DNA of 64,000 bases from Ligula intestinalis (taxonomy: Eukaryota > Platyhelminthes > Cestoda > Diphyllobothriidea > Diphyllobothriidae): NCBI GenBank assembly GCA_036362985.1, contig JAYGXS010000008.1:19596997-19660996 (forward strand), written 5' to 3'. This document shows positions 1,502 to 52,710 of the stretch, one piece after another (position 1 is the first letter of the stretch; every line of letters starts with the position of its first letter). The notes below the pieces were generated by a model. It saw only the letters and a list, made by a program, of their open reading frames with translations, had not been told where the DNA came from and did not search any database. A program made the translations under genes and the position numbers.

Positions 1502-4500
1502 GTATGTTTACTGTTACCTCCTATCCTTTGTGGAAATAGCGAAACCTTATTGCGAATGAATGAAAAACGTTTGCGTGAATCAGGAAGACGAGTTGTCGTG
1601 CACCAGATCAATTTGTTTATTGAAAACAAGCAACAGTAATAGGGACAGGAACACATAAAGAGGGCGGAAAGATCGAGGAAACCCATTAAGCACAAATGTC
1701 GGCCGTGCGAGTATACCTGCAGAAAGTAATTTATGCTGGCGTCAGATCGATAGATCGATTGACGGAATTCTCAATCGAGGTCCAGGATTCAAGCAATGCC
1801 CGGCCTGTCTTGCTGCCGGCATGGGCGATTATTTTCACAGCTGCAAAGTTAAAGTCGTGACCCGTCTCGTACGTGCGGACAAGAACTTGCGACAATGCGC
1901 CACCCCGTCTGACAGCTAGCTTATGTTCGAGTATGCGTTCAGTTTGCCCTCTATAGTAAAAAGAACAGCTTAAGCATGGAATGTGATACACTTTACCTCA
2001 TTGCTGACTGTGTAGAAAGAAATAGTATTTTCCTGCAGTGCCAGCTGCTGAGTAACCATAGTCAGAAATTACACGTAAATGTGTTTAAATATCTGAAACT
2101 GAATACGATTATTTAATATGTGCAATTCTAAGGTTTTAAACTTGCCGTTGTCCGCGATGAGAAGACTGATCATTAATGAATCTGCTGACAAATTCCTTTG
2201 AATAGTAAGCAGCAAAATTCCGCGAAAAGTCCGCATTGACAGATCATCGCGATGCTTCCATAATGTTTCAGGAAGTATTTTTTTGTAAATCAGAAAATGA
2301 AGCGTGTAATACTGAATTATCATTGAGTAATCCGACAGAGACATAGGACTCTAGGATGGCCACTTATGGCTCACAAGCCGTCGTCAGCTGGAGACACCGA
2401 ACTCCAGTGTTACGGCTAAAATTTCTGGCACACTCGAGTCTCGAACCCGCGATCTCTCCGGTCAGGGCAAACGTCCTAACCATTGAGTTACTGTCCGCCG
2501 TCTTGTCAGTTTTAGATCAGGAGTATATAGTAGCATGCAATCGCAAACCGATTTGCTCTGGACGTACTGAATTATACTCATGGATGAGCGCACAGTAAAC
2601 CCTGGTTACTGATATAATAAGCAGAAAGTGGACTGTTAAAACAGTGAACTCGATATCCCACATATAGATGGGCTTGCCAATTATATTATTTGTTGAGCAA
2701 GAAACTGGCTAACGAAAGCTGGATTATTCTGCACAATAAACATCGGCAGTTGGTGAATTGTGCCAGATCTTCTTTTTATTGTAAGAAGTTGGAAACCCGG
2801 GAGCTAATGAAAACCGATAACTGTGCCCTTGGTATCTTCGTAGAAGTATACTCTGCAAACTATTCTGTCACTACTGATCTATATAAAAGTTTTCAACGGG
2901 TCAGTTTGTCCCCCGGATACAAAGTCATTCCCGAAAGAAGGCTTTTTATGAATATTCGTTTTATAGGTGGAGTTAAGAATCATTATAGGTTGCCCTTGGT
3001 TTTTCTCCCTACCAATGGACACATATCCATCGGCTATTGTCGAAAACGTGGCATCAGTTTGGCAAAATTGTACCAATTCTCAAGTTGCAGCTCATTTGAG
3101 GAGACCCGGCCACACATTCGCCTTTAATGAAGCCGAGCATCTCACAAGAGATGATAATCGTGCTGATCGAGTATTACTTGAGTCATGGTTCACGGCTACT
3201 AGTAAAAAAACAAGTTCAACGACTGACCTAATTCATATCCAGTGCTGAGACTCAATTTGGCCAAATCAAGTGGCCACTTGGGGAAAGCATGGACCACCGC
3301 CTCATCTAACGCCAACAACGGGAACCAGATAACCGAGCAATCATCACGCCCGAGTCCATTACGCGTGATGAAAGTGAGAGCTCGCATACCGGTCAACAGA
3401 CTACCAAGAAGGCAGTTACTGTTAATTGTCATTGTGTGTTTGCAGGAGTGACTATTTCCTACAAATACTACAAATTCTTGAGCATATGTTACCCGTATCT
3501 GCTACTGCTTTCTGCGTATGTCTCTGATGATGAATACGCCACGGATCTCGAAGCTTTTGGCGAATAAAAGTATTGTCCCAGCGATCGAGTCGTCTTCTTC
3601 TCAATGATAATTTTCTGCTGGATTCGAAAGGGATGCGGCATTTGTTGCCCCAATCGAGGTTCATAGGGGAATCGGCTGCCCCGTTTTGTCTGGACTTCCA
3701 ACTTCGAGTTATGAAAAGACACTGGCGATCCCTAACTAAGCAGTATTACTGAAAAGCAAATACGAATCAAGTTGGGGCTATTGTTTCCAACCGGTTTGCC
3801 ATTTTCAGATGCCGGACCTCAGATTCAGATAGAACAACTGTCGTATGTGAGTTCGTCACTTACAATCACTGTTGTCTATCTGCATACTTCAGACTGTAGG
3901 GCATCCAGGCCGCATGCTAAATTTGTTGAGTTGCATGCTCGACTATGCTGGGGGCAACTTAGCTTAGAATAGTTATCTTAGTTTCGTTTCTTTGGTGGAT
4001 GGACGTTCAACAGTCATCTTAATTGTCCAGTTTGTCCTTGAGGTTTACTCTTAAGCCCCGCAAGCGGCCACACAGCGACTTGTATTATGGGCAGATCAAC
4101 ATTACGGAAGGGACTCAGGCAGCCTGGAATGGCTTTAGCTAGAGCCGTCACAAATTAACCATACCCGGCCCCAAACGGTGCACCACCGGGGGCTCGAACT
4201 CGCAACCTGCTGATTATAAGTCAGTTACCCTAATTCATTGAGTCACCTATTCGTCCTTTGTTACCGGTTTCCATCAAAACATATTAACCTTGGTGAATGG
4301 ACGCTCACCGATCGTTTACGGGCCTCCGTTCTGCCTCGGGGTTCAACCTCGTGTCCTGCCAGCAGCCACACAGCTGTTAGGCATGAGACGTTTACCAACA
4401 GAGGTTGGCAGTCTTCGCAAGACGCAAAGTACCGAACATGCGAAAGCAGTGTGGCGAAATGATGTTAATTCTCAAGTTGCAGCTCATTCAGCGAGACTTA

Positions 4501-7500
4501 GCAACACATTCACATTTAAAGAGGCCAAACTTCTCGCAACAGGTGACAATCGGGTTAGTTGAGAATTACTTGAGTCATGGTTCACGGGTCCAAATCCATC
4601 AACAGGTGCAACTATTTGCCCAATCAATATTCGGTACCGAGACTCAATTCGGCCAAAGCAAGTCGCCACTTTGGGAACGGACAGGCCACCGCCTCATCCC
4701 ATACCAGTACCAGAGGGCAAAATAACCGGGCAATCATCACACCTTAGTCCCCCACGCATGACGAAGAGTCACCATATCAGAGCCCGCATGCCGTTCAATA
4801 GACTAACAACGCTTACGAAGGCAATTACGGTTGTCTTCGTATGTTTGCAGATATTATTGTAGCCTATAAATACTGCAGATTCCTATGCATGTGCTACTCT
4901 ATCTGCTGTTGCTCTCTGAATATGTCTCTGATGACGAATCAGTGACGGATATAGAAACGTCAGTCGAGCAAAAGTATTGTTTCACCGATCGAGTCGTCCT
5001 CTTGTCCATTCCTTCCTGGGACTCGTATATTCGCTTGTTGAAGCTATTTTGTTTTTGATTGTCAAAGACCCACCAAGATGGTCCAACTCACAAAGGGATT
5101 GCCGCCATTCGGCCGCACGGAAAGAGCCCCAACATCTCAGAACTGCAAGGCTGTGTATTTTAAGAATACTCACTAAAATATCTCAGCGTTGGCATAAACC
5201 TATTTGAAATTGTGCCTGTCAGAAGAGTAGTCAGCTAATATTACTACTACTAGATTCTTCGTGCATAAGGCACATCAACGATTTAACAGTATTTGTTGCC
5301 TCAAGCTGATTATAAAGCAAAGTATCCAAAGACACTGACAGTCCGAATCTTAGTATTTCTACTAAAAAACTGCGAATCCAATTGGGCTAGTAGTTTCCAA
5401 CATGTTTGCCATCATCAGATAGCCAGACCGTAAATGCAGGTCAGAGAGCTCTGATACGTGAGTTCGTTCTGTAAATCAGAAGGTATCGCTCAAGACCGCT
5501 GTCTCTTAGCTGCAAAGTCCCAAGTGTATTCAACAAAATATGCGCCTGCAGATCATGCTAGAGCATGCTAGGCTTTTTTCTTGATGTATTTCTATATTGG
5601 CGGTGACTGAGTTTGTAACCGTTTTCCCAATTTCGTTTCTTTGGTGGGGTGAGGGGGTGTTTATTGATCATTTATGAACTTAACTTGCCCCGTACTGCCT
5701 TGGGGCTCAGCCTCCAGCCACTTCAGCAGCCGTACAGTGGCGACAGATCAATATCACCGACAGAGACCAGGAAGACTTGAATGGCAATTTATGGTTTGTG
5801 AGCCATCACCAGACAGCCATATGCGACCCCCGCTTGTACACCACCCGAGGCTCGAACTCGAGACCTTCTAAGTCAAGGTCAAAAGCTCTAATTTATTGAG
5901 TCACAGGTTCCTTTACTTGTAGGTTCCGATCAAGAAGGATAAAAGTTTGTAGATATACACTCCACGACCAGTTTTTGGCCGCAATCGTTTGGTTCTGCCT
6001 CAGGGTTTATCCTCAAGTCATGCCAGTAGCTATATAGCAGCTAATTTGGTCAGGGGAATTATCAGTCCTTATCTGCTTCTCAAAACGCCACCGTGATCGT
6101 CCAACGTATAGACAGGTCAACCTATTGGTCGGCATGAGAAACAGAAACATGAAGGCCTATACTTTAACAAAACTCACCAGAACGCCTCTGCATTGGCAAA
6201 AACCTTTTTTTATATTGTGTCCGGTAAAAGTTTAATTAATTACAACTGCGTGGCCGACCACTTCCTTGACAATGTAGTCATGGACACTTAAGCGCCCTAT
6301 ATCTCATGCTTTCAGCTATCAAATCCGATTGTACAGTCGCAGACGGGAACATGTGTCCAATGTACAATTTCCTCGTGCCTCTGCTAATGGCGATTTACAT
6401 GATTGCTGTTGCCGTTCTCCTCATCAATCTCCTCATCGCCATCTTCAGGTGAGTTGGGTCTACTTTCAGAGATTTTTTAGCGCATAAACACTTCATCGGG
6501 TAGGTTGTCAGGAAAAAGCGAAATTGCAGCAACAGTACAGCCTGTTGTTTTGTGTTTATGCCTTGCTAATTAAGCCGTCATTATTTAGTTTATTTGAGGT
6601 CGGTTCAGTTTTATTAGGGAAGAGATGGGCGAGTGCCATTGAATTCTTTATTGGTTACAAAATGCCTAAGAAAAGCATGAATACAGAAGAAGAATTTTTA
6701 AAAGCGATTATTTATTAATTTAGTTATAAGTGAGAAACTGTTGGCTAGCCGAAAACAGCCAACAAAAATGACTGCTAACCTACAATGAGTAGTATAATTA
6801 CATGCAAATGGTTTGCAATTCGCGTATAGTCGGCATGTAAATAGCTTGAAGTCTATCCAGCTTGCTTTTACGTGAAGTTGCAAAGGCGGTCACACTGCGT
6901 CATACACTGCAATCACTCTGTTACTTAAGGCAACAATTTGCGTGCATTGATCCCTGCTTTGCCTGGGGATAAGCGTGCAAAGTAGGCGTTTAAATCCGAG
7001 GGAAAAATCATTGGGAACAGAACAATAGTCCAGGCCATTCACAATGCGGAACGTTTATATGCGATCCCCTCCTAATTCCTTGTAGAAAAGGGGAACTAGG
7101 CTGAGGCAGTGTTTTCGGACCTTTGCCAATTTTTTTCGCTCGTCTCTGGACCCTTCCTAAGACGGTACAGCATTTGACAGTCCAAGTTTTCCATGCATGT
7201 ATGGCGAATTCCAGCTGCGGTCGAAAGAAACTTCCAAATATTTTGGAAAAGTTGTCTTTTTCAACTCCCATAAATGCTCGTCTAATCAAGTGTAATGTAG
7301 ATTTGGCCGACTTCACCGACAACGAGGTTACCCACAAAACCATGTCCTTCTGATTCTCAACTAGTTGTAGCGGTGTCCCATTTAAGGAATAAACCAGCTG
7401 GCTGGATGCTCCACAACTGCCAATTTGAAGAAATTTGTTTTTACCATTATTGAAAGGCGTTAGCCAACGCTTTGACCAGTACTCCAATCTGTTCAATTAG

Positions 7501-10500: not shown

Positions 10501-13500
10501 AACTTGGAGAGCAGGCATTTTAAGTAATGTAATTTCGAGAAAATGCGTTCCTTGGGACAATAAGAAATGTTATTGAGTAAACTTTCGACATTGGACCTCC
10601 AGGTCATCTTCAGGCATAAGAACCTGCGCAACTAAAATCAACATCTCAGAAGTGCTGTTACAGTTATATAGTCGTGAAGTGGGGGTGCTAAATGGCAGTG
10701 GAAAATTGCGTCACTACGTGGCAGGCACTAGTAGTAATATTAACCGAAATAACAAAGTGACTAATTGGCAAATTTAATTTGCGTCGGTCCGGTGTCAGTC
10801 CTTGTCATCCGATGTGGACGCTAATTGAGGTTCACGTTGGTTCGCGGGGGTCAGCTGTAGTCCATTTCATTTTTCTGTGAGATGCTTGTTCTCTTCATCC
10901 AACTCGGTACGTCGGTTGAGGCATGAATCATCGGAATGCATAGCCTCAAGACATTCTCGGCCTTTTTTTTGTGGAGCAAACTCTGACGATGCGTGTTTTT
11001 TCTCATGCAAAGGTGTGTCCTGTGTCAAGGCAATGAATAGCCACTTCGGACTAATGGTTACGTCTCATTCCAAGCAATTGGACTAAACACGCATCCAGAA
11101 GAAGACGACGGACTGATTTATATTCGTCCGTGTCTTTTTCTGCTTTCTGCTAATGTCTCTGATGATGAATCCGCGATCGATCTCGAAGCATCAGGCTTTG
11201 TCAGTTAATTTAAAAAGTTCAATAAACAGCAAGAATAACGGGTTTTCTTGCTAAACCACAGCCTGCCATGAAGAAATCGGAAAACAAGTAATAACAGATT
11301 ATGGGAATGACTGCAGGACCAGTACCGTTTTTGGGGCAAGGACACTTGTAATATTCGGGTGATGTTAAAGGGTTTTTATGAGTGACGTAAAAACAGCGAA
11401 AGAGAAATGCGAAAAAATAAAATTTACACTATTACGCGGCTTATGTATATAAACGGGTAGTGAAAATTCAAGTGTGCAATTCGAAATACGCAAAAGTGGG
11501 AATGGCTGATGAACCTTGACTCATGTATGTGGCAAAAAAACTACAAGTCAACACACCCAAAAGGTATAGAAAGATTTTCTTGTAAAAACAGAACCGAAAG
11601 AAACAATAAATCAAATTAAAATGAAAAAAATACGAACTGAGCAAAGAGAGAAGGGACAAACTGTAATTGCGAGGTAGTAAGCAGTTGATAGGCGGGCCTT
11701 CGAGAGCTTTTCAAGGTCAAACCCGATAAACATGGCATTACTGCAGTCTGTGAATTAATAATCAATACATGGTATAGTTAATAGTGTTTTCATAAGCTGG
11801 ACTCAATCATTAAACCTCAACTTCAACTTCAATCTCACCCTAACCTCAAACTTACCCTTAAAGCTGAACGTAAAAACTAACCACAAACCCAACGTTGACA
11901 CTAACCCCCACCTAAAAACATGAACCACGATATTTACACGCACAGTTTGCAATAATTGTTGCCTGCTTTAAGCGTTTGGCTATAAGTTGCGGTAGCTATC
12001 TAAGAAGACTAACGTTTGGGGTTTGGGGATGAGTACACTTCAGCAGTATTATTGATTCAAAACAGACGTAGATAGCAGGATTTATTGACCTCAACACATT
12101 GCGTGGCAGCTTCTCAACTGCATTTTGTTGTTGATAACGAAAAGAACATACAGCATTAGCAGATAAGCGTATACCAATCAGTTACAGGACACACCCATCC
12201 TGCTTGATGCCTTACGAAACTAACGGTGTGGTAGCCAGAGGGTTTATCGCAGGGATTAAGTAAGTTAAAACCTACCAACTGCGATCTTCAGTCCATGGTT
12301 CCTAGCGGAGAAGAAGTCTTGGGAAGGCCAGAATAGTAAGAAAAGTATATTGTGTACGCGGAGGAACGAAGACTAGAAGAAACAAGATTGACAACTAAGA
12401 GCACGATCTTCCGCTAGAGCGGCGTGATCCAAAGTGATGTCTGGTGGCCGAGGGTGGGTAAAAGGGGACATGTTTAAGGGGCGCTTGGGCAGTCGCGAGA
12501 ACTTGTCCCCGAGTGGAAGTAGGTCAAGTCTCTGAAGGTCAAACCGTCTGTAAGCGCTGACTGAGATATTGGATGACCTTGAGGTAGCTGGCCTTGAAAA
12601 ATGACGCCGGACAAATTAGTAAATGGCATCGGCTGGCAGTGGCCACTACAGGTTTAGGTGACATAAAGTCACATTTGATGCGGACATTTCTCGTCTAACA
12701 GAGAAGCGGTTTTTTTAAATTACCAGCATGTCGTAGCACGTTAAGGTTGTGGGTTATTGGTTCTGAGTGAATAAATCCTGGAATTATCTTTCGGTATAAA
12801 TTAAAATCTTTGGCAGTTCAAAATATTCCGTTATGGGAGATTGTCTTTGAGGCTACAAACCCGACTGAGGTCAAACATCAGACATTCATCTTCTAACTGC
12901 TGAAAAATTGTTTTAAATTGTCAATTTAAATTGTAGGCAGGCATATCGAGGATAATTGTATTTGCTAGCAGTGTGTCATGCTAAAATAAGCCTATAAATT
13001 TATCAAGGCCAGAAATACGTTTTTCTAAAAATATTTATCATCGTTGTTATCAGCAGGGTGTTGATAGTAGACCGCTAAAGCGAGAAACTGATATTTATGT
13101 AAAGCACACTTCTTGGATTTGTAAAAAGAATGCAATCAAATTTCCTTCCAAGAAACTGTTCCTGTACAACCACGTATTTGGTTTTGATATTCCCTCCACG
13201 AACTTCGTATTTCGTAGCTCAAATTCCATAGAAGTTTTTGATTCATCCCCGCCAGGAACGTGTCTTTACATTTTTTAATTTTTAGTAAAAGACTACTCTT
13301 ATTATTGAGACTTTATTTCAATCCCTCATTTTATTGAACAAGTATTATGTCAAAATGTTGTGTTAATGCTTTGAGATTAAAAAAGTATTTAGTTGATTGT
13401 ATAAACCGAACCTAGAGAGATGCCAGTGAATATTTATTTCTCGACAGAGAACAGATAGACGATTTTACATGCGTTTAAAATTAACTTTCACTGTACCCTC

Positions 13501-19619: not shown

Positions 19620-19800
19620 GTCAACAGTTTTATTTGCCTGACTTTTTGACATCCGTCGCCGAATCTTCATCAGAGACATGAGCAGAAAACTGTTGCAGAA
19701 GCAGGTACCTCAAACACGGGAGGCTGCAGTATTTATAGGACAGAGTCATTGATGCCTCCTTCGGCATAGGTAGCAAGCCTCTGAACTTCATATCTTCCTG
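19620..19800 (-). repeat. PLE terminal-repeat fragment with decayed hammerhead-like motif
   Basis: Minus strand: CTATAAATACTGCAG near 19740, then CTGATGA at 19673-19667, an arm GATTCGGCGACGGAT, and GTCAGGCAAATAAAACTG. The second box is mutated (AAA for GAA). The same module occurs at 3.5, 4.9, 11.2 and 33.2 kb. Confidence 0.5.
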
Positions 19801-19801
19801 T

Positions 19802-20810
19802 TTGGATGCTCGCACACAACGAGTAAAAATTTCGAATGTTATCTCCAACCCCACGCATGTGAGGAGTGGAGTTATACAGGGTTGTGTACTGGGTCCGCTC
19901 CTATTTTGCCTGTTTGTCAACGACGTTTCAGATTGTTTTCAGTATGGCAGACCCTTCATGTACGCTGATGATTTAAAAGTCGCTTATCGATATAAACCGG
20001 CAGATCGCAACATCGTGCTCGAGCTGATAAAAAGGGATCTTCAGGCCTTCGCCCAGTGCTGTTGCACATGGCGCCTCACTCTTTCATGGCACAAATGTTC
20101 CGTTATGGTTGTTGGCGACGATCATCAACCGGAATTAAGCATTGACGGCCACGAACTAAATGTCCCAGGAGTTATCAAGGATTTGGGCATATCCTACTCT
20201 ACTGATAGTCTCGAAAGCACGCCGAACCACCGGATTTATCCTTAGAAATTTTAAGACTATCAAGGTTAGAACTAGCCTTTATAATATGTACGTGAGACCT
20301 AGTCTTGAATACTGCTCACCCTTATTCAGTCTTCTGCGCACTAGTGAACGGAAGAAAATAGAATCGGTGCAGCACTTCTTCACAAGAAGAGTTTTCACTA
20401 CAGAACACCGTAACTTAACCTACCAACAAAGGTGCGAACTTATAAAGCTGGATCCCCTATGGCTTCATCGATTGCAGAAGGGTCTATTTTTACTGTTTAA
20501 ACTTTTGAATGGTCAAACCTTTAATCCTCTTAGTACAATAAGGCAGCTTGAGCACTCTCGACGCGCCAGTCATCGAGACGTATTTTTATTTCTTCCTATG
20601 GCACGCACAGTTAAGTACCGGCAATTCTTTTCAGTAAATGCCATATCAATCTGGAATAAGCTGCCCAAAAGTATTAAAACCCAGCAAAACTACCCTATGT
20701 TTAAGAGAGCTATAACTAGTTTTCTACATTCAGGACAACTTTCACGAATTTTGGGTGCTGACTCGGTGGAATCTCTCTTTCACTCTGATGGCGTTCGTGG
20801 ACTTTGAACC
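19802..20810 (+). pseudogene. CR1/Jockey-like LINE, 5'-truncated reverse transcriptase
   Basis: The first frame (19802-20245) reads SGVIQGCVLGPLLFCLFVND and FMYADDLKVAY, with the catalytic YADD intact at 19961-19972. The frame then shifts near 20210 into 20160-20807, which carries LYNMYVRPSLEYCSPLF and SIWNKLPKSIKT, the typical C-terminal end of CR1/Jockey-group polymerases. The endonuclease and N-terminal RT fingers are missing, as expected from 5' truncation during target-primed reverse transcription. Confidence 0.82.
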
Positions 20811-21274: not shown

Positions 21275-21710
21275 AAGGCAATTAGCCGTGATCGCCTTCT
21301 TTTGTGTTGATTGCGTGAGTACCGGCACGCGGGCCCTGAGTTGCTGAACTTTCATCACTCGTGGTTGAATTCGACACTTTGATTGCCCGGCCATCTGGTT
21401 TCCCGGAGTTGGCGTAAGATGACTTGTTGGCCTGTGCGTTCTCCGAGTGGCGACGTGCATTTGCGAACTTGAGTCACAGCACTGCATAGGGACTGGGCAG
21501 ATCATTGCACTTGTTTATGGATTGGAGGCCTGTGAACCACGAATCAGGTTAATCTTGGCTCACATCTTGCTAGCATTTCGGTCTCATCAAATTTGAAAGT
21601 GTGACTGGGACCCATCGAATGAGCCACCTCTTGAGAATTGGCATCATTTCGGAAGTTGGCGTCCTCTGAAGTCTGCCAGTTTCTCCAACTTAATGGTTTT
21701 GTCCGCAACT
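21275..21710 (-). pseudogene. Penelope-like element 3' part, minus strand
   Basis: Minus-strand translation from about 21655 reads NSQEVAHSMGPSHTFKFDET, the counterpart of NSQVAAHLRRPGHTFAFNEA at 3.1 kb, then a stop and the same 3' untranslated sequence (including CCGGGCAATCA) down to 21280. This is the same PLE family as at 2960-3575 and 4400-4985. Confidence 0.6.
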
Positions 21711-21789
21711 GCACTAGATCCAATAGATGACTCCAGATATTTCTTGCCGTGACAGTGGGTCTTTCGCTTTATTATCTGATGCCTTATGG

Positions 21790-21986
21790 TTGCTTCCGGC
21801 CTTCTTCCCATTTACGTCCTGGGACTCGTAAATTCGCTTGCATTGGAAATAAATGCAACGACCTGGCAATCCATATCCAGTGCTGAGACTCAGGTTTGCC
21901 AAAGCAACTGGCCAATCGATGAATGCACAGGCGAACGCGTCTTCGTATGCCTGCGCCAGGGAGCAAAATGGCCGAGCAATCATCCA
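21790..21986 (+). repeat. PLE 3' untranslated fragment abutting the duplicated TRPM exon
   Basis: CCAGTGCTGAGACTCAG through CCGAGCAATCATC aligns with 3239-3345. It stops at about 21986, exactly where homology with the TRPM duplication begins. Confidence 0.6.
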
Positions 21987-23385
21987 GGATTATTTTTTTC
22001 TCAATCACTATTTCCAAAATACTTTAAGACATACCCTACTTCATCATTTCAATCACCGGGCTGGGCCCAAGATTCAAATGATTGTTCAAATGTTCAAGGA
22101 ACTACTCATCTTTATGGTCATCCTAGCCGTCTTCCTCGTATCCTCGGGTGTTGCAATGCAGAGTCTCCTATACCCTTACCGGACAGAATTTAATGTCTCA
22201 GTTCTGCTGGACGTTGTCTACATACCCTACTACCGCATGTACGGTGAACTGAACCTCGACGAGTCAAACGGTATGTTGACTGTTAACTCTTATCCTTTGC
22301 GGAAATATCGAAAACTTTTTGCGAATGAATGAAAACGTTCGCGTTGCAGGTATTTGCATGAAGGAGGATGAAGGGTTGTCGTGCACCGGATCAATTTGTT
22401 TATTGTTGTGAGCGTTTGGGGCCCTTGCGGGAATCCCTTACCGGAGATAAAAACGTCTACGAAGAATGAGCAACAGTAATATGGGCAGGAACACATAGAG
22501 AAAGGGGAAAGATGGAGGGAACCCATTACTCACCAGTGTCGGTTGTGCGAGTATGCCTGCGGAAAGTGATATATGCCGGCGTCAGATCAATATATTGATT
22601 GACGGAATTCTCAATCGAGGTTCAGGTTTCAATCAATGCTCGGCCTGTCTTGCTGCCGGCATGGACGACTATTTTCGCAGCTGCGAAGTTAATGTCGTGA
22701 CGCGCTTCATAGGGGTGGGGCTGCCACTTGCGACAATGCGACACCCCGTCTGACAACCAGCTTATGTTTGCGTATGCGCGTACCGAGCATGCGTTCAGTT
22801 GGCCCTGTATAGTGGAAAGGACAGCTTAAGCATGGAATGCGATACACCACCCTTTATTGCTGTCTCTGTAGAAGGAAATAGTATTTACCTGCAGTGTCAG
22901 CTGCTGAGTAACCATAGCCATTAATTACGCGTAAGTGTGTTTAAATATCTGAAAACCAATACAATTACTTGATCTGCGCAATTCTAAGGTTTGAATCTTG
23001 AAGTAATCCCTGAAGATAAGATTGATCATTGATGCATCCACATACCAATTCCCTTATAAAATTATAAGGAAAATTCTGCAAAAAGTCCGCATTGACAGAT
23101 CACGGTGGTGCTTCTATAATCTTTCAGGAAGTAATTTTGTGATTCAGAAAAATGCAGCGTGCGATATTGAATTATTATTTAGGTATTCCGACAAAGATAT
23201 GGGATGCTAGGATGGCCATTTCTGGCTCCTTAGCCGTCGTCAGCTAGAGATACACATCTCCAGCCTTACCGCTGAAATTGCTGCTACACTCGAGTATCAA
23301 AGCGCGATCTTACCGGTCCGGGCAAACGTCCTTAGCATTGAACTATTGGTCTGCTGCCTTGTTGGTTTTAGATCCGGAGTAGAGA
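21985..23385. repeat. Segmental duplication, copy 2 (from TRPM gene A)
   Basis: Partner of 1190-2535. It carries the S5/pore exon copy, the intron start, the antisense PLE nuclease fragment (about 22540-22830) and the SINE (about 23210-23375). Confidence 0.8.
22060..22270 (+). pseudogene. Duplicated TRPM S5/pore exon, acceptor lost
   Basis: Same 211-nt length as the exon at 1291-1501, with nine base differences. The frame is intact: GPKIQMIVQMFKELL, the S5 helix, and YYRMYGELNLDESN. Changes are A to V, I to M and A to S, plus the first codon. The donor G|GTATGT at 22271 is intact, but the acceptor CACAAG of the source is CACCGG here, so the AG is gone. No other TRPM exon is recognised between 14.6 and 39.9 kb, so this is an orphan exon and probably non-functional. 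Confidence 0.75.
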
Positions 23386-28169: not shown

Positions 28170-28900
28170 AGAGAAGTAGGAAATATAAATGAACAGAAAA
28201 AAAATTCGGAAAATCAAGCAGTAGTCATGAGTTTTCGAGAAGGTAGCACTTGCTCGTCGTCAGACTGAATGAATAAAAGTGAGAGCTGCGAGTGTCGCAC
28301 AAGAGGGTTTGGGGGCACAGGTTTCATCAAACGGGTTGGGGGCTAGGAGATGCATTATTGTGACTTGTATCCTGCAGCGATAGGTTCTGCAAGTGAGAAG
28401 GGGTTTGAACGTTTAGATTATAGGCCACGTGTCTGGGAGCATGCAGAATCAGTGACGTTCTACTAGACCGAGCACGGATAAACTGTTGTTGTTTCACGCA
28501 TGGCGCAATTTAGTGGATCATGCGCGCAAATTGGCGTAATTTGAACAGAGATCCACGTGCCTGCTAAAGCTGTTTGGGCTTCAGTGCCAAGCTTCGAGGA
28601 ATTCTCTCGCTTGTCTCGTGTTAGCCACGGCAATCACCTCGGCGCCACCTATATTGAAATGGTAATCAAACTCAAGATGGTTCGCAAATACAAGTGATTA
28701 AGGTGCCCGTTGGCGAACGGCTAGCTGAATTTTCGTTGATGCAAGTCCCAAGACGTCGGCCTGCGTGGCCAACATAAACGCATGGACAGCTGGCGCATGG
28801 TATGCAGTAAACGTTACTATATTGTTCTACGGTTGCGCTCAATGAGAATGCAGCTTGTGGGTGACGGATATGCCAAAGCGACTTATACGTCGAGGCCAAC
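28170..28900 (-). pseudogene. Penelope-like element, nuclease plus 3' end, copy 1
   Basis: Minus-strand 28899-28672 contains YCIPCASCPCVYVGHAGRRL, the Cys and Y-V-G part of a GIY-YIG nuclease. Downstream (28600-28560) the expected Glu-containing segment is out of frame, and the remaining 3' part aligns over about 600 bp with 52085-52705. The 3' end carries a CTGACGA box at 28263-28257 and GAAAAC near 28236-28232. Confidence 0.7.
28232..28263 (-). ncRNA. Hammerhead-like motif in PLE 3' end
   Basis: Minus strand: CTGACGA, an arm that can pair GAG(C)AAG with CTTCTC (six pairs, one bulge), then GAAAAC. Counterpart at 52132-52161. Confidence 0.45.
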
Positions 28901-32584: not shown

Positions 32585-33560
32585 CTGAGAATACAGCGAC
32601 AAGGCAGCCAGCTGGTGCAATTACCGGACACGTAAATAGTCCGGTGTGTGTGAAGTGACTGATGAGTAGACTGCGAGTCAGCCGGCGACGGCCCCTTCTA
32701 ATCCCTTGATTTTGTAGTTCTTGGTATGTGTGTGTGTTGTGGCGCGCGCAGACGGATTCACCGGCACTGTCCGCCAATGCACCTGATCCCGCCTCCGGTC
32801 TTGTTGACTCTGTCTTGACACGAAGCTCAGGGGGGTGAGGGAAGAGAGAGTGCAGCACATGTCAACTACCATTAAAAAACTAATTTACGCGCAGTATATT
32901 GTCAAGATCATCGAAATCGATGGTCAAATTGTCACCCTAGCATGCTTTAAACTCAGGCCATATTCCTCAGATAGTTCAGATGCATAAACTCTTGTGCACG
33001 ATGCAATACGAAGCATGCTCCACTAACCAGAAGCCACCTTCAGGGGAAGATCAAAAAGCATGAGATACCAGCCAAGTTGGCAGCTGCATCTGCTTAACCA
33101 GTACACAAAACTGATGTGGTAGACAACAGTAGAGAATATGTGAGTACTAGGAAGAAGAAAAAGATGCGATCACTGGACCACCAGTTTTATTTGCCTGACA
33201 GTTCGGATTCCCTCGGGTATCCTTAATCATAGGTGATGATGACTTAATCATGGTCATGCGCAAATAGGGTTATAACATGCACAGGTTGCACTGTATTTAT
33301 AGTTCATAGTGCCTATCTGCATGCGTGTGTTTGATAGGTATTCACTTCTTTAGTCAACGCTTGGGTCTTAGTTGATGCGATATTGTCTCGAAACTTCGCG
33401 TTAGACTCACTAATAGCCACAATTGCCTTGGCAGCGTTGGCTGCGGGCTTGGTAATTGCGTGACAATTGAGTCAGTTTTTGTCAGCAAATGTATGCAGTG
33501 ACAACTTTCGTGGAGAAAAATAGCCTGTCAGGCAGCCTACACAGCATTAACGAGAACAGA
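32585..33560. repeat. Dispersed repeat family Y, longer copy
   Basis: The first 300 bases match 61-400. The part from 32880 matches 44530-44880 (TTTACGCGCAGTATATTG, ATAAACTCTTGTGCACGA, GAAGATCAAAAAGCATGAGA). A PLE terminal-repeat fragment interrupts it at 33175-33310. It probably continues at 35240-36190 after later insertions. Confidence 0.6.
33175..33310 (-). repeat. PLE terminal-repeat fragment
   Basis: Minus strand: ACTATAAATACAGTGCAACC, then a decayed first box (CTATGATTA), a GGATACCCGAGGGAATCC hairpin and GTCAGGCAAATAAAACTGG. The ends match 19620-19745. Confidence 0.5.
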
Positions 33561-38590: not shown

Positions 38591-38599
38591 ACAAAGTTA

Positions 38600-39135: not shown

Positions 39136-39138
39136 TCA

Positions 39139-39360
39139 AAGAAAGGGGAGCGTTCACCGGGAGAGGTTGATTACAAGTCTGACGATTTGGGTAGTGGTCT
39201 CGTCTACCCATCTTCAGAGAATGGATACTCTGGCTCAAAATTCTCGTCTTTATGCGGTCCTTTCTTGCGTGTATCCATTATCTGAAGATGGGTAGACGAG
39301 ACCACTTACCGAAACGTCAGACTTGTTATAAACCTCTCCCGGTAAACGCTCCCCTTTCTT
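39139..39360. mobile_element. Foldback (inverted) pair of PLE terminal-repeat sequences
   Basis: Arms 39139-39229 and 39271-39360 are near-perfect reverse complements around a 41-base spacer. Each arm holds AAGTCTGACG-type sequence, TAGTGGTCTCGTCTACCCAT and a TCTTCAG/CTGAAGA box, so the hammerhead-like motif is present once on each strand. The 41-base spacer and the length suggest a foldback derivative of a PLE terminal repeat. Confidence 0.75.
39282..39317 (+). ncRNA. Hammerhead-like motif, right arm
   Basis: CTGAAGA at 39282-39288, a GGGTAG arm, and GAAACGTCAG from 39311. In the left arm (minus strand, box at 39217-39211) the stem is a perfect TGGGTAG/CTACCCA, while the second box reads AAATCGTC. 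Together they imply an intact ancestor. Confidence 0.5.
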
Positions 39361-40735: not shown

Positions 40736-40739
40736 TGAT

Positions 40740-41970: not shown

Positions 41971-41999
41971 AAACCTATAAATTATTCATAAAAATTCAA

Positions 42000-42690: not shown

Positions 42691-42699
42691 CTAGACCCT

Positions 42700-44490: not shown

Positions 44491-44499
44491 GAGACTGGA

Positions 44500-46570: not shown

Positions 46571-46599
46571 CTTAAACATGCGTAGAAATCGAAGGTCAA

Positions 46600-47500
46600 A
46601 GTGTCAAATTAACGGGCCGAAGTTGAGTTCTGATTAAATGGATTATCAAGATTATTTTGGCTAAAGAAGAAGGCCTCGTCGGAATACTGGGATATGCTTG
46701 TGAAGTTTCAAGCAGCGGCCCGTCTGCACACTAAATGCACAGTGCAGAAGGTGAAATGACTGGTTAAGGTCAGTTCGTGCAAAAGGACAGACAAATAAAA
46801 ACAGGCAGCCAATGTACGAAAAGGAGGAAGGGTGGTAGACCGACGGTTACGGCAGAATTAGGTTTGAAGGGAGGAGGGTGAAGAGTTCCACGGCTGTCTT
46901 TGTAGCAAGGGAAGGCGAGGGCACTTCAGTGCGGCGGCGGCGGTCCGTACATGTTTTCGCGGAGGATGTGGTTGACTAAGATGACCAATCACCCGTGTTC
47001 AGATATGTTCCGGAATTTTCAGTTGTGGTTCGTTGTGCTCGCGTTAGACAGCCGTATCACTCCTCACCCTCCTCCCCCCACCTCAAGTTTGACCCTAACC
47101 ATTTTCCCACCACCCACCCCTCTTCATATATCGGCTGCCTATTTTTCTCAGTCTGTCGTCTTGCACAAACTGGCCTTAACCGGCCATCTCACGTCCTGCA
47201 CTGTTCATTGAGTCTGCAGGCCCCCCCCCCTGCTAACTGCTCGAAAATTCACAAGTATATCTTATTTTTCCAACGGACCTTTCTTACCTATCATATAATC
47301 TTGGAATGCAGCCTACTTCATCCATCCATTATTTAAGCTGTTGCAAACCACTTACTTGGTAATGGAACAGTTGATTGAAACGATTTAGGGGATATTGCTT
47401 TTAGTATCTTTGCCTCTTCCTTTACCAGTTATTTCCTCATAATCCTCCTCCCACGCTCAGCAGAGCAGGCCTAGCCAAAGGGGAAAAGAGAGCGAGATGC
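46600..47500. other. Nothing recognised
   Basis: Purine-rich near 46820-46910, C-rich near 47070-47230. Open frames short. Confidence 0.4.
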
Positions 47501-47703
47501 CTCATGGTTTGCAACTTGCCTTTACATGACGCAAGCCTGCGCACACAGTACAACGTGGCCTACGATCCATGGGGACAGAAAAAGCAGCCTATGGCTGAGA
47601 TCACCATGGATCTGAGGAGCAGCTCCACGCCTACAAAAAGATATAGCACCGAATGCTCCCACTGCGATTAGATCAGCTTGCGGACGGTGGGACATCTGTT
47701 GAA

Positions 47704-47981
47704 GTTGATGACCGGTTGTGCCTATCCGGAAGTCTACTCGGACGACAGCTTGGACGACAGCTTGGACAACCCATTGCATGACCCTTCAGACGAGGTGGAG
47801 GTGAGTTAAAGTTCGCTCACGGCAAATCATCTTCGAGGAGGTTGCCTTTATGAATGCGAAGAGGAATAGCGGAGCCAGGAAACAGTATCTATGATATTTA
47901 AAATGGTCCTCAATCCTAAACTCATATCTCTATTTTTGTTTCATAGGATAATATCAAGCGGTTGGTCCGTCCATATCAGGT
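47704..47981 (+). other. Two weak exon candidates
   Basis: 47708-47801 reads PEVYSDDSLDDSLDNPLHDP and ends GAG|GTGAGT at 47802; the SLDD unit is a 12-base tandem duplication. 47949-47981 reads DNIKRLVRPYQ between TTTCATAG and GTTTGT. They lie between the two TRPM gene B exons, but I do not recognise either as TRPM. Confidence 0.25.
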
Positions 47982-48344
47982 TTGTAACAATTTAAGTTTA
48001 TCCAGATTATTTTCTGGCTGCATGCCGAAAAGGGGAATAGAGGCAATATCAATTGGGCCTCTATTGCACTTTCACGAATATGCAAACTGCTGATTCCATT
48101 AAGGCCTCCCAGTTAGTCCACTTTTCATTTGTGTGGCGTGACATGCCATGACTGACTGGTGGCATCAGACTTAGACATAGTAGTTGCATCATAATTTGGA
48201 CTCTATGGACACTTGCGCATGTAAGGTTCGAGCGGCTTCCTCCTTTCATGTGAGTGTCCTCTAAACAGGCCAGATTAGTGTACGACAGGCGTTATTCGTG
48301 TTGATCGCTGATTAAAAATGCCAAACTTGGGGGTCGGGCGTGGC

Positions 48345-49035
48345 ACAAGTGAACTATAGAAGGGAGTGCAGTAAATGCAGCGCAAGCCTACTATATACTT
48401 ACTTATTTGTACTTGTTATGGCTGCGATCGTGCCTGCTCTAGCCAGCCTAGATGACAGTTTCTCTCCGTGCGTGACGATTGGTGGCGGCCGATATGGAAA
48501 GCTGTACATAGTCTCTTCTCCAGCGCCGGAAGCCGAATACCGAAGGACCAGGAACCACTTACATGTCCTGGCGGAGTGAGTTGAGCCAGGTTTTGAGTTG
48601 ACTGCCTCTTTGACGTTTCCAAATAAGTAATAGTTTCAAGCCGAGGGTAGTAGCTCTGATCTCCTGAGCTTGATGAGTAAGAATGTATCCGAATCACCTC
48701 AGTCATCTTTCCTGAATGGCCTGAGATATCATTATGATTGAGTCGCAGCGAGTGCGGACTGTCTCATTTGAGACGAAGTCGGTGCACCTCACGCGAAGGA
48801 TTCTCTTCAAACAGAAGTGGTCAAAGGCTTCCAACTTCCGTACATCTTCCACGCGCATAGCCAAACATTCGCATTCCTACAGAAGAACGGACTGCACAAG
48901 TGTATGGTACACGCAGATCTTTGTGGCGATAGAAATATCGCCTCGGGTCCATGGGAACTTCCAAAGGTTGGAAAATACTCGTCGCGTTGCGACATTGCAC
49001 TTCAAAGCAGCACGGGACGTGTAAGTGCTGTAAGT
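48345..49035 (-). pseudogene. RTE-like LINE 3' end fragment, copy 3
   Basis: Collinear with 42690-43300: CTTGTTATGGCTGCGATCGT, TGCGTGACGATTGGTGGC, and TCTCATTTGAGACGAAGTC correspond to the same blocks there. A third copy is at 30500-30920. The RT palm is missing. A further small tail match lies at 49305-49365. Confidence 0.6.
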
Positions 49036-49084
49036 AATTGGTGAGCGTTCACTAACGCGTGTACATATCTCCTGATCTAAACCG

Positions 49085-49230
49085 GCAGGACTATGAGCTC
49101 ACAGCGTAGTCGATTAGACCATTAAACTTCGAACCGTCAAGTCGCGGTTTCGAGCCTTGTGTAAGGCACTTCTTGGGGTTGGGTGCAACTGGCTCAGGCC
49201 GGCTGATAAGCCAGAAACGGTCTCTCCTGT
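49085..49230 (+). repeat. tRNA-headed SINE copy
   Basis: GAGCTCACAGCGTAGTCGAT (A-box region), GGTTTCGAGCC (B box) at 49145, then GGCCGGCTGATAAGCCAGAA, the shared central domain. Confidence 0.6.
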
Positions 49231-50091
49231 CTTTACTGGCAAAGTCTAGCAGACTATTTATTTTGGAAATATCTAACCCTGGTTCCGCCCCCAATATCCT
49301 CAGAGAATGAGTGAGGAGAGAGTGCGGTAGATATTGCGCAATTTACTGTCATTGTACTTGAAGTCCGGCGTGGTTCAACGACCTTGTGACTACTTAACTT
49401 TAGGACAGCCTGTGGAAATAGTCGGAAACTGGAATCATCTGGTTGGGTTTTGCTTGAACATGTGTGATACCGGTGAAATTATTGAATGATTTTGATAAGT
49501 CCAAATATATAGATGATACCAATAATTGTGAAGCTGATCGGAGTGGCAACTTAGTCAAAGGAAAGGTATTCATAAAAGGAAGTTTAAATGCTGGAATGCG
49601 ATTCATTACAAAGCAGTGTTTTGTTTCAAAGACTGATTTAATATTTTAAGCAAAACTAACGATCGTATGACTTTAGCTTTTAGGCATAAGGCGCACTACT
49701 AAACACCTGGACCTTTCATTTTTTGATGAGTGTAATTGGATTGAAGTTGTAAAGAAGGACCATTAAGCAGAAAAATTAGACGAAACCCCAAAAGTTCAAA
49801 TGTTGTACAACCTACTGTAAAGCACTAACCAGAGGGTCTATACCCCTTATACGTAGTTGAGAGGAGAACGCTTTTCGTGATTTATTTCATATATTTTTAG
49901 ATAATCTTGGAGGTCGCATTTAACCAGCATAATCTAGCCATACGTCGTACTGTCCCTACAGAGTTTTAAGTATAAGCGAGTATGACCAGTGAACGTAGGA
50001 AATGTCATGAACTAGCCGATCTACTCGAAATATCTTTTTGCAGAACGTTCAGGCAGCTGTGCAAGCAAAGTCAGCTGTAAAAGTGGATCCG

Positions 50092-50160
50092 ATGAAGACA
50101 AGGGAGACCGGAATGGCTATTTCTGGCTTGTTAGCCGTCAGTTTTAGTGCAGTGTCGGCG
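50092..50160 (-). repeat. Partial SINE related to the 57.5 kb satellite
   Basis: GATGAAGACAAGGGAGACCG, then GAATGGCTATTTCTGGCTTG and TTAGCCGTCA match the satellite unit body. The tRNA head is missing. Confidence 0.65.
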
Positions 50161-50499
50161 GTCGAGCGTGGGACAGTATGTATTTAGACAAAGCACTTTA
50201 TCGCACACGGTTCACACATAAAGGCTGAAAGCATTTAAGGGGAACGCGAGACACATAACCCGTGGCAATAAGCTGATTCGCGCGGGGTCCTTTGGTGCGT
50301 GATTCATCAGGATTCTCAAAATCTCCCCTTCATGTATGCGTATGGCGAGCACGGTTTGTCTGGTGGTTGAGGGCGGTTTCCGGTCTACTGGTGCGCGGCC
50401 AGGAACTACTTCTGAAAGCGGTACATCAGATGGGGCTGTGGCATTCAGTGCGGGGATCGACGGCTCTGCTGGAATGGCAATGGTGTCCAGCAGGATGGC

Positions 50500-50835
50500 A
50501 AGAAGGAATGAAGTGCCTGATTCATTCAAAAGAGATCATCCCACTTGAAATCTATTCCGGTTCCCATTAGTAACTGAAAGGTTGCTATAAGGTCGCCTTT
50601 GTCTCGTCTATAATGGAGGGAAAAGATATTTAAAGCAATCAGACGCTGTTCGTATGTGGACTGCTTATGTTTAGGGGCCGCTTTGGTAGAACGTCGTTGA
50701 ACACCATCGAGGACCCCCATGTCTTTTTAAAGCCAGGGCTGCCAAGCCTGTATCACTTATTCCAGATGGGGCCGTACGAATGTTTCATATAATTTTTCGA
50801 AGATATCAGTATTAAGGTTAACGAACTTCCTTCGT
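50500..50835 (-). pseudogene. CR1/Jockey-like LINE RT fragment
   Basis: Minus strand: LYETFVRPHLE, a stop, VIQAW, then GVQRRSTKAAPKHKQSTYEQ and LNIFSLHYRRDKGDLIATFQ. This is the conserved C-terminal stretch of CR1-group polymerases (Q-R-R-x-T-K, Y-R-R-x-R-G-D). The minus frame 50529-50212 downstream is not recognised. Confidence 0.72.
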
Positions 50836-51127
50836 ATATGTGTCTGTTGTCATCTCGTGAGTTCATACTACACAAAATCCACACAGGAGTTACTTGTAAA
50901 TACAATGCTACTCACATTTTGTGAATAGTAATTTTTAAATGTCAATTTTTAAACATGCATACACAAGTTATACGACAAAGCAGCATAGGGTTTTCAAGGG
51001 CATTGCCTACGACCCTCACTAAACCGAAAGAGATCTCACATGGCTTGAGTAACTTGCAAATATTTGCATTCTACAGAAGATGACAACCCATCTCATTAAT
51101 CGCCGGTCCGAGGATACCGACGACTGA

Positions 51128-51496
51128 ACCTGCACTGAACTAGCTGCTCAAGCGCACAGTTACAAATTCATGAGCTTCGTATCCGGTCCCTACGCCGTCG
51201 ATTTTGTTTGGTGTGCGGGCGTCAAGGCCAACGGGTTTATGATATTCTTGGCCTACTTCTGTCCCCTTCTCTTGTTCTCCGACTAACTATACCTCTTTGG
51301 TATGGAGTCTGTCAATTTTGAGGATGCGGCCAGCAGGTCGTACATGATACCTCTGGTGAGTACCGGCACCCAGGGTAACGAAGCGCCCGGTGAACATTCA
51401 GATGATAAATACGATGTATACAATAACGTCGAACGCTTGAAGTGCCGGGTAAAACAATTCTACACCTCGCCGCGGACTAAGTACTTCGTTAACTTG
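51128..51496 (+). pseudogene. TRPM gene B exon: pre-S1/S1 region, with in-frame stop
   Basis: The frame from 51128 reads VWCAGVKANGFMIFLAYFCP and LLLFSD, then TAA at 51284-51286, then MESVNFEDAASRSYMIPL, an acidic linker, and CRVKQFYTSPRTKYFVNL up to a donor TTG|GTAAGA at 51497. In TRPM proteins a hydrophobic pre-S1 helix, a variable linker and an R/K-x-F-Y-x-x-P-x-x-K-F-W motif before S1 occur in this order, so both halves look like one exon broken by a stop. Alternatively the real exon starts after ATGGAG at 51307, and the first half is an older remnant. S2 to S6 of this gene are not found downstream. Confidence 0.65.
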
Positions 51497-51544
51497 GTAA
51501 GACTTTGGTTTTGCACTAATATCAGTCGACCAAGATCATAGCGA

Positions 51545-51965
51545 TGGTGGGGCCTTGGTAGCTCAGTTAACTAGAGGTTTTCCATTGCTAGAGGGTGGTC
51601 ATAGTCTACCGCAGCCGCCGAGGTTTTCACAACTAAGTTAAATATACTATCTAAATCTTTCAAATCCCATAATTCTGAAAATCGCCTTGTAGCCCTCCAG
51701 CGGATTCTTGATCAATTGCTTAGGAAATCCTGTTTGGACAATCAGTTTACTTTGTGCTTACTGTGGTGGAGTGCTCACGTTGCAGTAAGCTGGGCAGGTC
51801 GATAAACCCAAGTGTGCTTAAACTGAAGGCTCACAGTGGGGCCTCGATAACTTAGTTGGCTACAGAATTGGATGTAATGAAGCCTTCTCCTTGCTAGCGT
51901 AATGGAAGTTAAATTATTTCCGCGAACTTATTTAAATAATCCAATGTTCGGTGCCCCATAAATAA
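51545..51965. repeat. Dispersed repeat with roughly 290-bp unit, copy 2 (two units)
   Basis: GGTGGGGCCTTGGTAGCTCA at 51547 and GTGGGGCCTCGATAACTTAG at 51838 start two units. The unit end CAATGTTCGGTGCCCCA is at 51942. Matches 40740-41165. Confidence 0.5.
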
Positions 51966-52084
51966 AATAGAAAAATTCAACCAATTGATTTATAATTGAT
52001 TTATTTACTTTCTGTTTAGTTTTTGTTGTGTTTTAAGTTTATTTTTATGGATAAGTGAAGTAAGTTGCACTCCGCGATGGTATG

Positions 52085-52710
52085 ATGAAAAGAAAGAAGA
52101 TCTTTGGAAAATCGAGTTGTACTCGTGAATTTTCGCACAAGTATCACGTGTTCGTCGTCAGACTAAATTAAAAGTGCGGGCTGCGAATGTCGTACTAAAG
52201 GTTTTGGAGGCAGAGGTTACAACGGACGGGGGAGGGAAAGGGGGGGATTGGGTGGAGGGGTTATGGTGACGTGACACCCGCGGCGATAGGTTGTGCTGGT
52301 GAGGGAAGGGAGGTGTTAACGTTTGGACTGTGGGCCACGTGTTCGGGGAAGGAGGGCTGGGTCAGATTCAGCACGGACAGCTTGCTGTTTTTTCAGGCTG
52401 GGTTCAGATTCGTCGATGATGCACGAAAACTGGTATAGTCTGAGTCAAGCTCTACGTGTCTGTTTATAATAGCCGGCCTGGAGTGCCAAGCTTCGAGGTA
52501 TTTTCTCGCTTATCGCGTATTAGCCATTGCGATCACCTCGGTCCCATCCCACTTGAAGCGGTGATCACACTCAAGGGAGTGCGTAAATACGAGTGATAAA
52601 CGGTCCCGTAGGCGAACGGCCGACTTATGTTCGTAGATGCGAGTCTGAAGGCGTTGGCCTGTTTGGCCAATATAAACACTAGGGAAACCAGCGCACGGTA
52701 TTTTATTATT
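52085..52710 (-). pseudogene. Penelope-like element, nuclease plus 3' end, copy 2
   Basis: Minus-strand translation from about 52680 reads VYIGQTGQRLQTRIYEHKSA (Y-I-G block, Arg, Tyr, His), then LECDHRFKWDGTEVIAM, one stop, then YLEAWHSRPAIINRHVELD with the catalytic Glu and the Asn-Arg-His block. This is the best preserved GIY-YIG nuclease in the window; only the first Cys/GIY part and one codon are lost. The 3' end carries CTGACGA at 52161-52155 and GAAAATTC near 52134. Confidence 0.82.
52132..52161 (-). ncRNA. Hammerhead-like motif in PLE 3' end
   Basis: Minus strand CTGACGA, an arm that can pair ACAC with TTGTG, then GAAAATTCAC. Equivalent of 28232-28263. Confidence 0.45.

What the first reader, a model, noticed from the sequence alone, without database searches (positions are those of the whole stretch)
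3455..52161. Recurrent hammerhead-like ribozyme motif in several PLE terminal repeats
Seen: CTGANGA followed by a self-complementary arm and GAAA at 3524 (+), 4928 (+), 11159 (+), 28263 (-), 39217 (-), 39282 (+) and 52161 (-), with decayed versions at 19673 and 33250 (-). Arm sequences differ between families (GAATCC/GGATTC, GAG-AAG/CTTCTC, GGGTAG/CTACCC) while both boxes stay, as expected for structured RNA. Several lie directly after GIY-YIG nuclease debris. Known: Penelope-like elements carry hammerheads in their terminal repeats. Oddity: every copy has a pyrimidine between the first box and stem II, where classical hammerheads have a closing G-C pair.
Basis: partly seen in the sequence, partly recalled or inferred. 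Interest (0 to 1): 0.75.

Follow-up and report, generated by a model that had tools for sequence, protein, structure and literature searches.

The report
Start-codon hammerhead ribozymes in Penelope retrotransposons
The repeated motif is the small RNA-cutting hammerhead that Penelope-like retrotransposons are known to carry; here decayed copies overlap the apparent start of the element's own gene, and one copy belongs to an abundant family whose catalytic core has a re-paired variant.

Summary
The motif is real and is the known minimal hammerhead of Penelope-like elements (PLEs). Rfam finds nothing, but a covariance model built only from other PLE loci recovers seven of the nine reported sites clearly, the other two weakly, and three missed copies. 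The exact motif occurs 8,576 times genome-wide (reversed-pattern control: 3). Stems I and II covary; stem III is a four-base palindrome (ACGU, AGCU or AAUU), which fits action as a dimer.

The reported oddity is an extra base before an intact stem II. Most often it is the U of an AUG formed with core base A9, so the ribozyme overlaps the apparent start of the PLE reading frame, as published for an Anolis PLE.

New here: the copy reported at 33250 belongs to a family (3,524 exact genomic copies) whose core pair C3-G8 is A3-U8, so that the core itself reads AUG; the mismatched A3-G8 form has 254 copies. The natural covariation I could find in print is U3-A8.

Cleavage is untested. Energy-based folding does not favour the hammerhead, a codon-position test was negative, and A3-U8 may be a single evolutionary event.

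The parts
3516..3566 (+). decayed hammerhead copy, family A (core CTGATGA, extra T, GAAG)
   Evidence: 9.6 bits with R1, filters off; sequence
4920..4970 (+). hammerhead copy, family A (core CTGATGA, extra C, GAAACGTCA)
   Evidence: 25.0 bits, E 3e-5
11151..11201 (+). decayed hammerhead copy, family A
   Evidence: 36.7 bits, E 5.8e-9
19631..19681 (-). decayed hammerhead copy, family A, extra base A
   Evidence: 38.6 bits, E 1.4e-9
28220..28271 (-). hammerhead copy, family B (CTGACGA, extra C)
   Evidence: 32.8 bits, E 1e-7
33188..33238 (-). decayed copy of family H: core ATGATTA (A3-U8), extra base A
   Evidence: 13.3 bits, E 0.17; same form 3,524 times genome-wide with intact GAAACGTCA
39172..39225 (-). 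hammerhead copy with 21-nt stem-loop II, left arm of a divergent pair
   Evidence: 25.7 bits, E 1.8e-5; inverted arms 39139-39228 / 39271-39360
39274..39327 (+). hammerhead copy, right arm of the same divergent pair
   Evidence: 23.3 bits, E 1.1e-4
52118..52169 (-). hammerhead copy, family B
   Evidence: 40.1 bits, E 4.8e-10
   Evidence: 34.5 bits, E 2.9e-8
   Evidence: 23.5 bits, E 9.5e-5
   Evidence: 17.8 bits, E 0.0059
3024..3179 (+). PLE endonuclease (GIY-YIG) remnant before the 3524 copy
   Evidence: tblastn E 2.9e-13
4401..4571 (+). PLE endonuclease remnant before the 4928 copy
   Evidence: tblastn E 2.1e-14
10879..10974 (-). PLE endonuclease C-terminal remnant before the 10613 copy
   Evidence: tblastn E 4.2e-7
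28521..28892 (-). PLE endonuclease remnant before the 28263 copy
   Evidence: tblastn E 1.9e-8
52420..52704 (-). PLE endonuclease remnant before the 52161 copy
   Evidence: tblastn E 1.1e-20

Best explanation
These are decayed copies of the minimal type I hammerhead ribozyme carried in the terminal repeats (pLTRs) of Penelope-like retroelements. Shown: the conserved core (CUGANGA ... GAAA ... UC), covarying stems I and II, a four-base self-complementary stem III contact, a place some 250-520 nt after the GIY-YIG endonuclease, and element ends at two preferred distances after the core. Shown more weakly: core and stem II overlap the apparent start of the PLE reading frame, most often with A9 as the A of an AUG, which explains the odd pyrimidine. 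Inferred: two ribozymes (the 5' and 3' repeats of one transcript, or two transcripts) pair through the palindrome into a double hammerhead, perhaps helped by the PLE protein, and cut after C17 about nine codons into the frame. That would trim tandem or read-through transcripts to unit length and part the start codon from the gene, so that an RNA is either translated or processed.
For: 23 strict copies in 20 loci fetched by protein, not by motif, against a mean of 0.16 (maximum 2) in 100 simulations; 8,576 exact genome copies against 3 for the reversed pattern. Hammerhead pairing: 9 of 11 pairs with two-sided change, covariation 0.438 against 0.165 shuffled and at most 0.124 slid; on 42 copies 12 of 14 and 0.432 against 0.170. 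Inner stem III pair C-G 16, A-U 9, G-C 6, wobble 4, broken 5 of 40 distinct rows. Same-strand motif 399-516 nt after GIY-YIG in 9 of 20 loci. Ends of shared sequence: 24 of 45 copies at 66-82 nt and 14 at 100-117 nt past A9, matching the tail described for PLEs (PMC11167929). AUG at core bases 6-8 or 9-11 in 93 of the first 100 listed genome copies. In L037 the ribozyme-proximal frame runs on within a 131-aa open segment ahead of the RT region.
Against: No Rfam hammerhead match in the window, even at E up to 10, nor in 14 loci. RNAalifold predicts no pairs on A1. In 12 of 12 copies nearest-neighbour folding prefers another structure to the hammerhead, as monomer and as dimer. Codon-position differences downstream are flat (0.444, 0.476, 0.465). 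Families C1 and B have neither AUG, and other in-frame AUGs lie upstream in family H. In the Anolis PLE, ribozyme mutants still insert RNA in vitro, the ribozyme does not cut without protein, and no RNA-seq reads start or end at the cut site (PMC11167929), which speaks against an essential role. Related sequences inflate the covariation scores.
Confidence: 0.75

Rival explanations
1. The sequences descend from PLE hammerheads but the ribozyme no longer cuts in this genome; the stretch is kept because it holds the start of the gene and the tail at which reverse transcription begins.
For: Folding energies do not favour the hammerhead; published Anolis data show insertion without ribozyme activity (PMC11167929); the window copies carry core or stem changes.
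Against: Two-sided changes keep stems I, II and the stem III palindrome across families, and family H keeps a standard 3-8 pair.
Confidence: 0.15
2. The motif is a plain hairpin (CUGANG pairing with CGUCAG outside stem II), for example a protein-binding or template stem-loop, not a hammerhead.
For: Box 1 and GAAACGTCAG are partly complementary and the energy model prefers other folds to the hammerhead. The hairpin also exceeds its shuffles (0 of 500), largely through the shared stem II.
Against: Covariation 0.219 against 0.438 on A1 and 0.266 against 0.432 on A2; in the outer helix one of six pairs has a two-sided change; C3 with 1.2 is broken in 20 of 40 and G8 with 15.2 in 27 of 40 distinct rows.
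Confidence: 0.06
3. The likeness reflects only protein coding: CTGATGAYGA reads S-D-D-E in another frame, or the N-terminal peptide M..K-R-Q is what is conserved.
For: Several window copies have an S-D-D-E reading in one frame; the A9 frame gives similar peptides in several families.
Against: Codon-position differences are flat; stem II and stem III change on both sides together; stem-loop II lengths of 18, 19 and 21 nt do not keep one frame.
Confidence: 0.04

Closest known systems
Minimal type I hammerheads of Penelope-like elements (Cervera and De la Pena 2014; Lunse, Weinberg and Breaker 2017: papers not held, seen as citations and as described in passages of PMC6155905, PMC7229834 and PMC7761336)
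   Same: Place in PLE repeats, no stem III nucleotides beyond the contact, proposed action as dimers, thousands of copies
   Different: Whether those papers already report the extra base, the three palindromes or A3-U8 could not be checked
Anolis Poseidon PLE (PAc) hammerhead (PMC11167929: passages and main text part 2 read)
   Same: [quoted passage not shown] C3 and G8 before the start codon; tail-like ends about 111-118 bp into the ORF
   Different: Here many families in one probable flatworm genome, some with ACG after A9 and a second AUG at A6-U7-G8, and one family with the AUG at A3-U4-G5
Natural U3-A8 hammerheads (Perreault et al. 2011, PMC3088659, section 8 read)
   Same: Compensated replacement of the C3-G8 core pair
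   Different: A3-U8 instead of U3-A8, in a PLE, and coinciding with an AUG in the core
Newt and axolotl type I hammerheads (PMC7229834, PMC6155905: passages)
   Same: Weak helix III with a palindrome; better cleavage as dimers
   Different: Those sit in non-autonomous tandem repeats and keep loop contacts; here the PLE itself carries the motif

Membership tests
PLE minimal type I hammerhead | Conserved core CUGANGA / GAAA / UC | tested here: met
   14 invariant positions in 23 copies chosen by these boxes (partly by construction); exact motif 8,576 times against 3. Window copies: GAAA intact in four of seven main sites
PLE minimal type I hammerhead | Stems I and II with compensatory changes | tested here: met
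   RNAalifold on A1 predicted nothing
PLE minimal type I hammerhead | Stem III reduced to a contact that works between two copies | tested here: met
   Inner pair C-G 16, A-U 9, G-C 6, wobble 4, broken 5 of 40 distinct rows; dimer formation itself not tested
PLE minimal type I hammerhead | Self-cleavage after C17 | not testable with these tools
   needs RNA
Penelope-like element | RT and GIY-YIG endonuclease in the element | tested here: met
   GIY-YIG by Pfam in 2 of 6 pieces given; RT-bearing homologues; RT and endonuclease upstream of the motif in L032 and L035; window holds endonuclease remnants
Penelope-like element | Terminal repeats with an optional tail | tested here: met
   two preferred end distances
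Rfam hammerhead families | Score above the curated cut-off | tested here: not met
A3-U8 hammerhead variant (family H) | Compensated 3-8 pair rather than chance | tested here: inconclusive
   A3-U8 3,524, A3-G8 254, C3-G8 8,576 copies; C3-U8 asked 19 times, never answered; could be one event. Of the four readable H copies not chosen by U8 (L015, L024, L013, window 33188) three are A-U and one A-A

The most novel reading that the evidence does not exclude
In one very abundant PLE family the ribozyme core and the start codon share bases: C3 became A so that A3-U4-G5 is an AUG, and G8 became U to restore the core pair, giving a working natural A3-U8 hammerhead, after which the base following A9 was free to stop being a pyrimidine. 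The ribozyme would be a switch that cuts the AUG off its own gene when two RNAs pair through the palindrome.
Probability: 0.35. Interest if true: 0.7.

Novelty: new variant of a known kind. Interest (0 to 1): 0.5.

Why it matters
A review calls the activity and role of PLE hammerheads in vivo still a mystery (PMC7761336, passages). Their overlap with the start codon, three alternative palindromes, and a family in which start codon and core pair seem to have changed together would make that role testable: translation and cleavage would be alternative fates of one RNA, and dimer pairing can be varied by palindrome. The A3-U8 family would be a natural test of the core pair. It also shows that the standard Rfam models miss thousands of such motifs in one genome.

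Tried and rejected
Rfam on the window (gathering, and E up to 10) and on 14 loci (gathering): no hammerhead. RNAalifold on A1: no pairs. Energy folding of 12 copies: hammerhead not favoured in any. Codon-position test on 27 of 34 in-frame copies (7 near-duplicates dropped): flat. Idea that stem-loop II lengths are multiples of three for coding: dropped, since a copy with ATG and a 19-nt stem-loop exists (window 10570-10621). Idea that the pyrimidine is always the U of AUG: only partly true; bases 9-11 in the first 100 listed copies read ATG 59, ACG 27, ATA 4, ACA 4, AAG 4, AGT 1, ATC 1. The link between base 7 and the A9 AUG (Fisher p 0.0004 for 100 rows, 0.016 for 75 distinct) rests on related copies from the start of one contig. 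Database homologues lack the N-terminus. Planned genome-wide counts of C3-U8, of the AGCU and AAUU palindromes and of GAAANNTC in total did not complete. Rows dropped: the three weakest of 44 model hits and the three weakest of 14 (E 0.31-0.98), with 3516-3566 added; eight of 53 rows (four in duplicated segments, four without a partner). A2 includes four H copies (L030, L033, L034, L036) fetched by a pattern that requires U8, so its 3-8 counts lean towards A-U. Print: A3-U8 with hammerhead gave no paper; hammerhead, AUG, pLTR, Penelope and related terms gave five papers, of which by title only PMC11167929 is on the point; the main PLE hammerhead papers and the core-pair exchange paper are not held.

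Full report
What is there. The window lies in a 644-Mb genome. PLE protein from the same genome is closest to proteins of the tapeworms Sparganum proliferum and Spirometra erinaceieuropaei (58% identity over 98% of the query), so the host is probably a flatworm; that is inference. The nine reported sites are real but less clean than stated: all seven main sites have CTGANGA, four of the seven have GAAA, 3524 and 11159 have GAAG, 39217 has CAAA, and the extra base is A at 19673 and at the copy reported at 33250. Rfam release 15 gives no hammerhead in the window, even at E up to 10, nor in 14 related loci at gathering level.

More than chance. I fetched 20 loci by GIY-YIG matches, not by the motif. 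They hold 23 strict copies in 184,946 bases, against a mean of 0.16 and a maximum of 2 in 100 first-order Markov sets. In 9 of the 20 the motif follows the endonuclease on the same strand by 399-516 nt. The model table adds five loci (L011, L015, L018, L019, L023; E 3.3e-5 or better) at about 350-500 nt, distances worked out by hand; since the model was trained on copies from these loci, that is weaker evidence. Model R1, built from the 23 copies without window sequence, finds seven reported sites at E 1.1e-4 or better, 33188-33238 at E 0.17 and three unreported copies; 3524 scores 9.6 bits, only without filters. Genome-wide, CTGANGAN{18,19}GAAACGTCA occurs 8,576 times against 3 for the pattern read backwards.

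Structure. With the hammerhead pairing named beforehand, 75.6% of cells pair on A1, 9 of 11 pairs have a two-sided change, and the covariation score is 0.438 against 0.165 in shuffles and at most 0.124 when slid. On A2 (the 23 copies, all twelve window copies and seven more family H copies; 40 distinct rows) the values are 75.0%, 12 of 14 and 0.432 against 0.170, at most 0.177 when slid. The tool warns that relatedness alone can exceed such shuffles. The first stem II pair is G-C in 36, A-U in 2, G-U in 1 and other in 1 of 40 rows, so the closing pair is kept and the odd base is inserted before it. Stem III is only A15.1-N-N-U16.1; its inner pair is C-G in 16, A-U in 9, G-C in 6, wobble in 4 and broken in 5 rows, so that the four bases are mostly the palindromes ACGU, AAUU or AGCU, which can pair only between copies. 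A rival hairpin (CUGANG with CGUCAG) scores 0.219 on A1 and 0.266 on A2, also above its shuffles because it shares stem II; in its own outer helix one of six pairs has a two-sided change. Against the hammerhead: RNAalifold predicts no pairs on A1, and nearest-neighbour energies prefer other folds in 12 of 12 copies, monomer and dimer.

Context. Five of the twelve window copies follow a PLE endonuclease remnant by 258-357 nt. Copies stop resembling each other at two preferred distances past A9: of 45 copies with a partner (eight of 53 dropped), 24 end at 66-82 nt, 14 at 100-117 nt, 4 between and 3 earlier. For an Anolis PLE, reverse transcription is reported to begin 111-118 bp into the ORF, and an optional 30-40 bp tail is described for Penelope (PMC11167929, passages and main text part 2). 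[quoted passage not shown] The last two speak against an essential role.

The odd pyrimidine. In the first 100 genome copies listed (from the start of contig C1, not a random sample) the base after A9 is T in 64, C in 31, A in 4 and G in 1; bases 9-11 read ATG in 59 and ACG in 27. With U at base 7, A6-U7-G8 is a second AUG in the same frame. 93 of 100 copies have at least one of the two; copies without U at base 7 have the A9 AUG in 31 of 38, those with it in 28 of 62 (Fisher p 0.0004; 0.016 on 75 distinct sequences). So the pyrimidine is best read as mostly the U of a start codon. Families C1 and B have neither AUG and are unexplained. Which AUG is used is open: in-frame AUGs also lie upstream in family H (L035), and codon-position differences downstream are flat (0.444, 0.476, 0.465). 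One copy shows that this frame leads into the PLE gene: in L037 the peptide TLVPVIASSSSELLPGTRIFATIG, which in other H copies is in frame with the AUG, runs on within a 131-aa open segment, followed by the RT region in another frame.

Family H. The copy reported at 33250 has core ATGATTA. ATGANTA with the same spacing and GAAACGTCA occurs 3,524 times (control 4); ATGANGA 254 times (control 8). C3 is A and G8 is U, so the core pair is A3-U8 and A3-U4-G5 reads AUG, in the frame of the other families. The base after A9 is A in 93, G in 5 and C in 2 of the 100 listed copies, as expected if it is no longer in the start codon. Stem II pairs 1-7 form in 52-57 of 61 distinct copies, with a two-sided change at pair 7 (C-G 41, U-A 10, other 10 including three U-G). 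Of eight H loci fetched, two (L032, L035) carry PLE RT and endonuclease on the same strand within about 500 nt upstream; in L031 PLE protein lies on the other strand. In A2 the 3-8 pair is C-G in 32, A-U in 6 and other in 2 of 40 distinct rows, but four H rows came from a pattern that requires U8. Of the four readable H copies found without that requirement, three are A-U and one is A-A. Perreault et al. 2011 report natural U3-A8 and cite in vitro activity of covarying nucleotides at these positions (PMC3088659, section 8). A3-U8 may be a single event; the C3-U8 count did not complete.

How it most likely works. Shown: sequence, pairing pattern, place in the element, ends. Inferred: two ribozymes pair through the palindrome, perhaps with PLE protein, and cut after C17 about nine codons into the gene. 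Uncut RNA is translated; cut RNA has lost its start and is trimmed to unit length. The window's own copies are decayed and I claim no activity for them.

Known or new. The ribozyme class, its PLE home, its proposed dimer action and the start-codon overlap are known. What my searches did not show in print (two key papers not held) is the A3-U8 family and the link between base 7, the extra base and the place of the AUG. I rate it a new variant of a known kind.

Noticed in passing
window 39139-39360; lists: Hammerheads occur in divergent (head-to-head) pairs: of adjacent listed copies within 1 kb, 8 of 10 in the C3-G8 list and 11 of 12 in the A3-U8 list are minus-then-plus, several about 60-140 bp apart. 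The 39217/39282 pair is one (inverted arms). Likely inverted PLE terminal repeats.
   Followed up: partly
L037:1650-1690 (G000:C1:8117600-8120400): The 5' part of one PLE copy begins at GAAACGTCAG, inside its own ribozyme, joined to an inverted piece of its endonuclease region (by eye against L035).
   Followed up: no
L021:4231-4281 (-) and 6185-6235 (+): A family whose stem II is AAAAAC/GUUUUU, with an A-U first pair and ATA in place of ATG after A9.
   Followed up: no
L009:8380-8431 and relatives; window 28220-28271, 52118-52169: Families C1 and B have the pyrimidine as C, no AUG at bases 6-8 or 9-11, a 19-nt stem-loop II and mostly the AAUU palindrome; where their gene starts is unexplained.
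   Followed up: partly
window 57532-64000: Diverged tandem array with a 311-312 bp unit.
   Followed up: no
window 1734-1991 (-), 21550-21865 (-), 22719-22850 (-): PLE endonuclease remnants with no model match within about 500 nt downstream.
   Followed up: no
window 7008-7496 (-), 19739-20807 (+): Open frames that look by eye like pieces of LINE-type reverse transcriptase; not tested.
   Followed up: no
window 54366-55349: Large inverted repeat, arms 54366-54644 and 55071-55349, 83% complementary.
   Followed up: no
L027:1450-1530 (+): tRNA-like Rfam match, 34.4 bits against a cut-off of 29.
   Followed up: no
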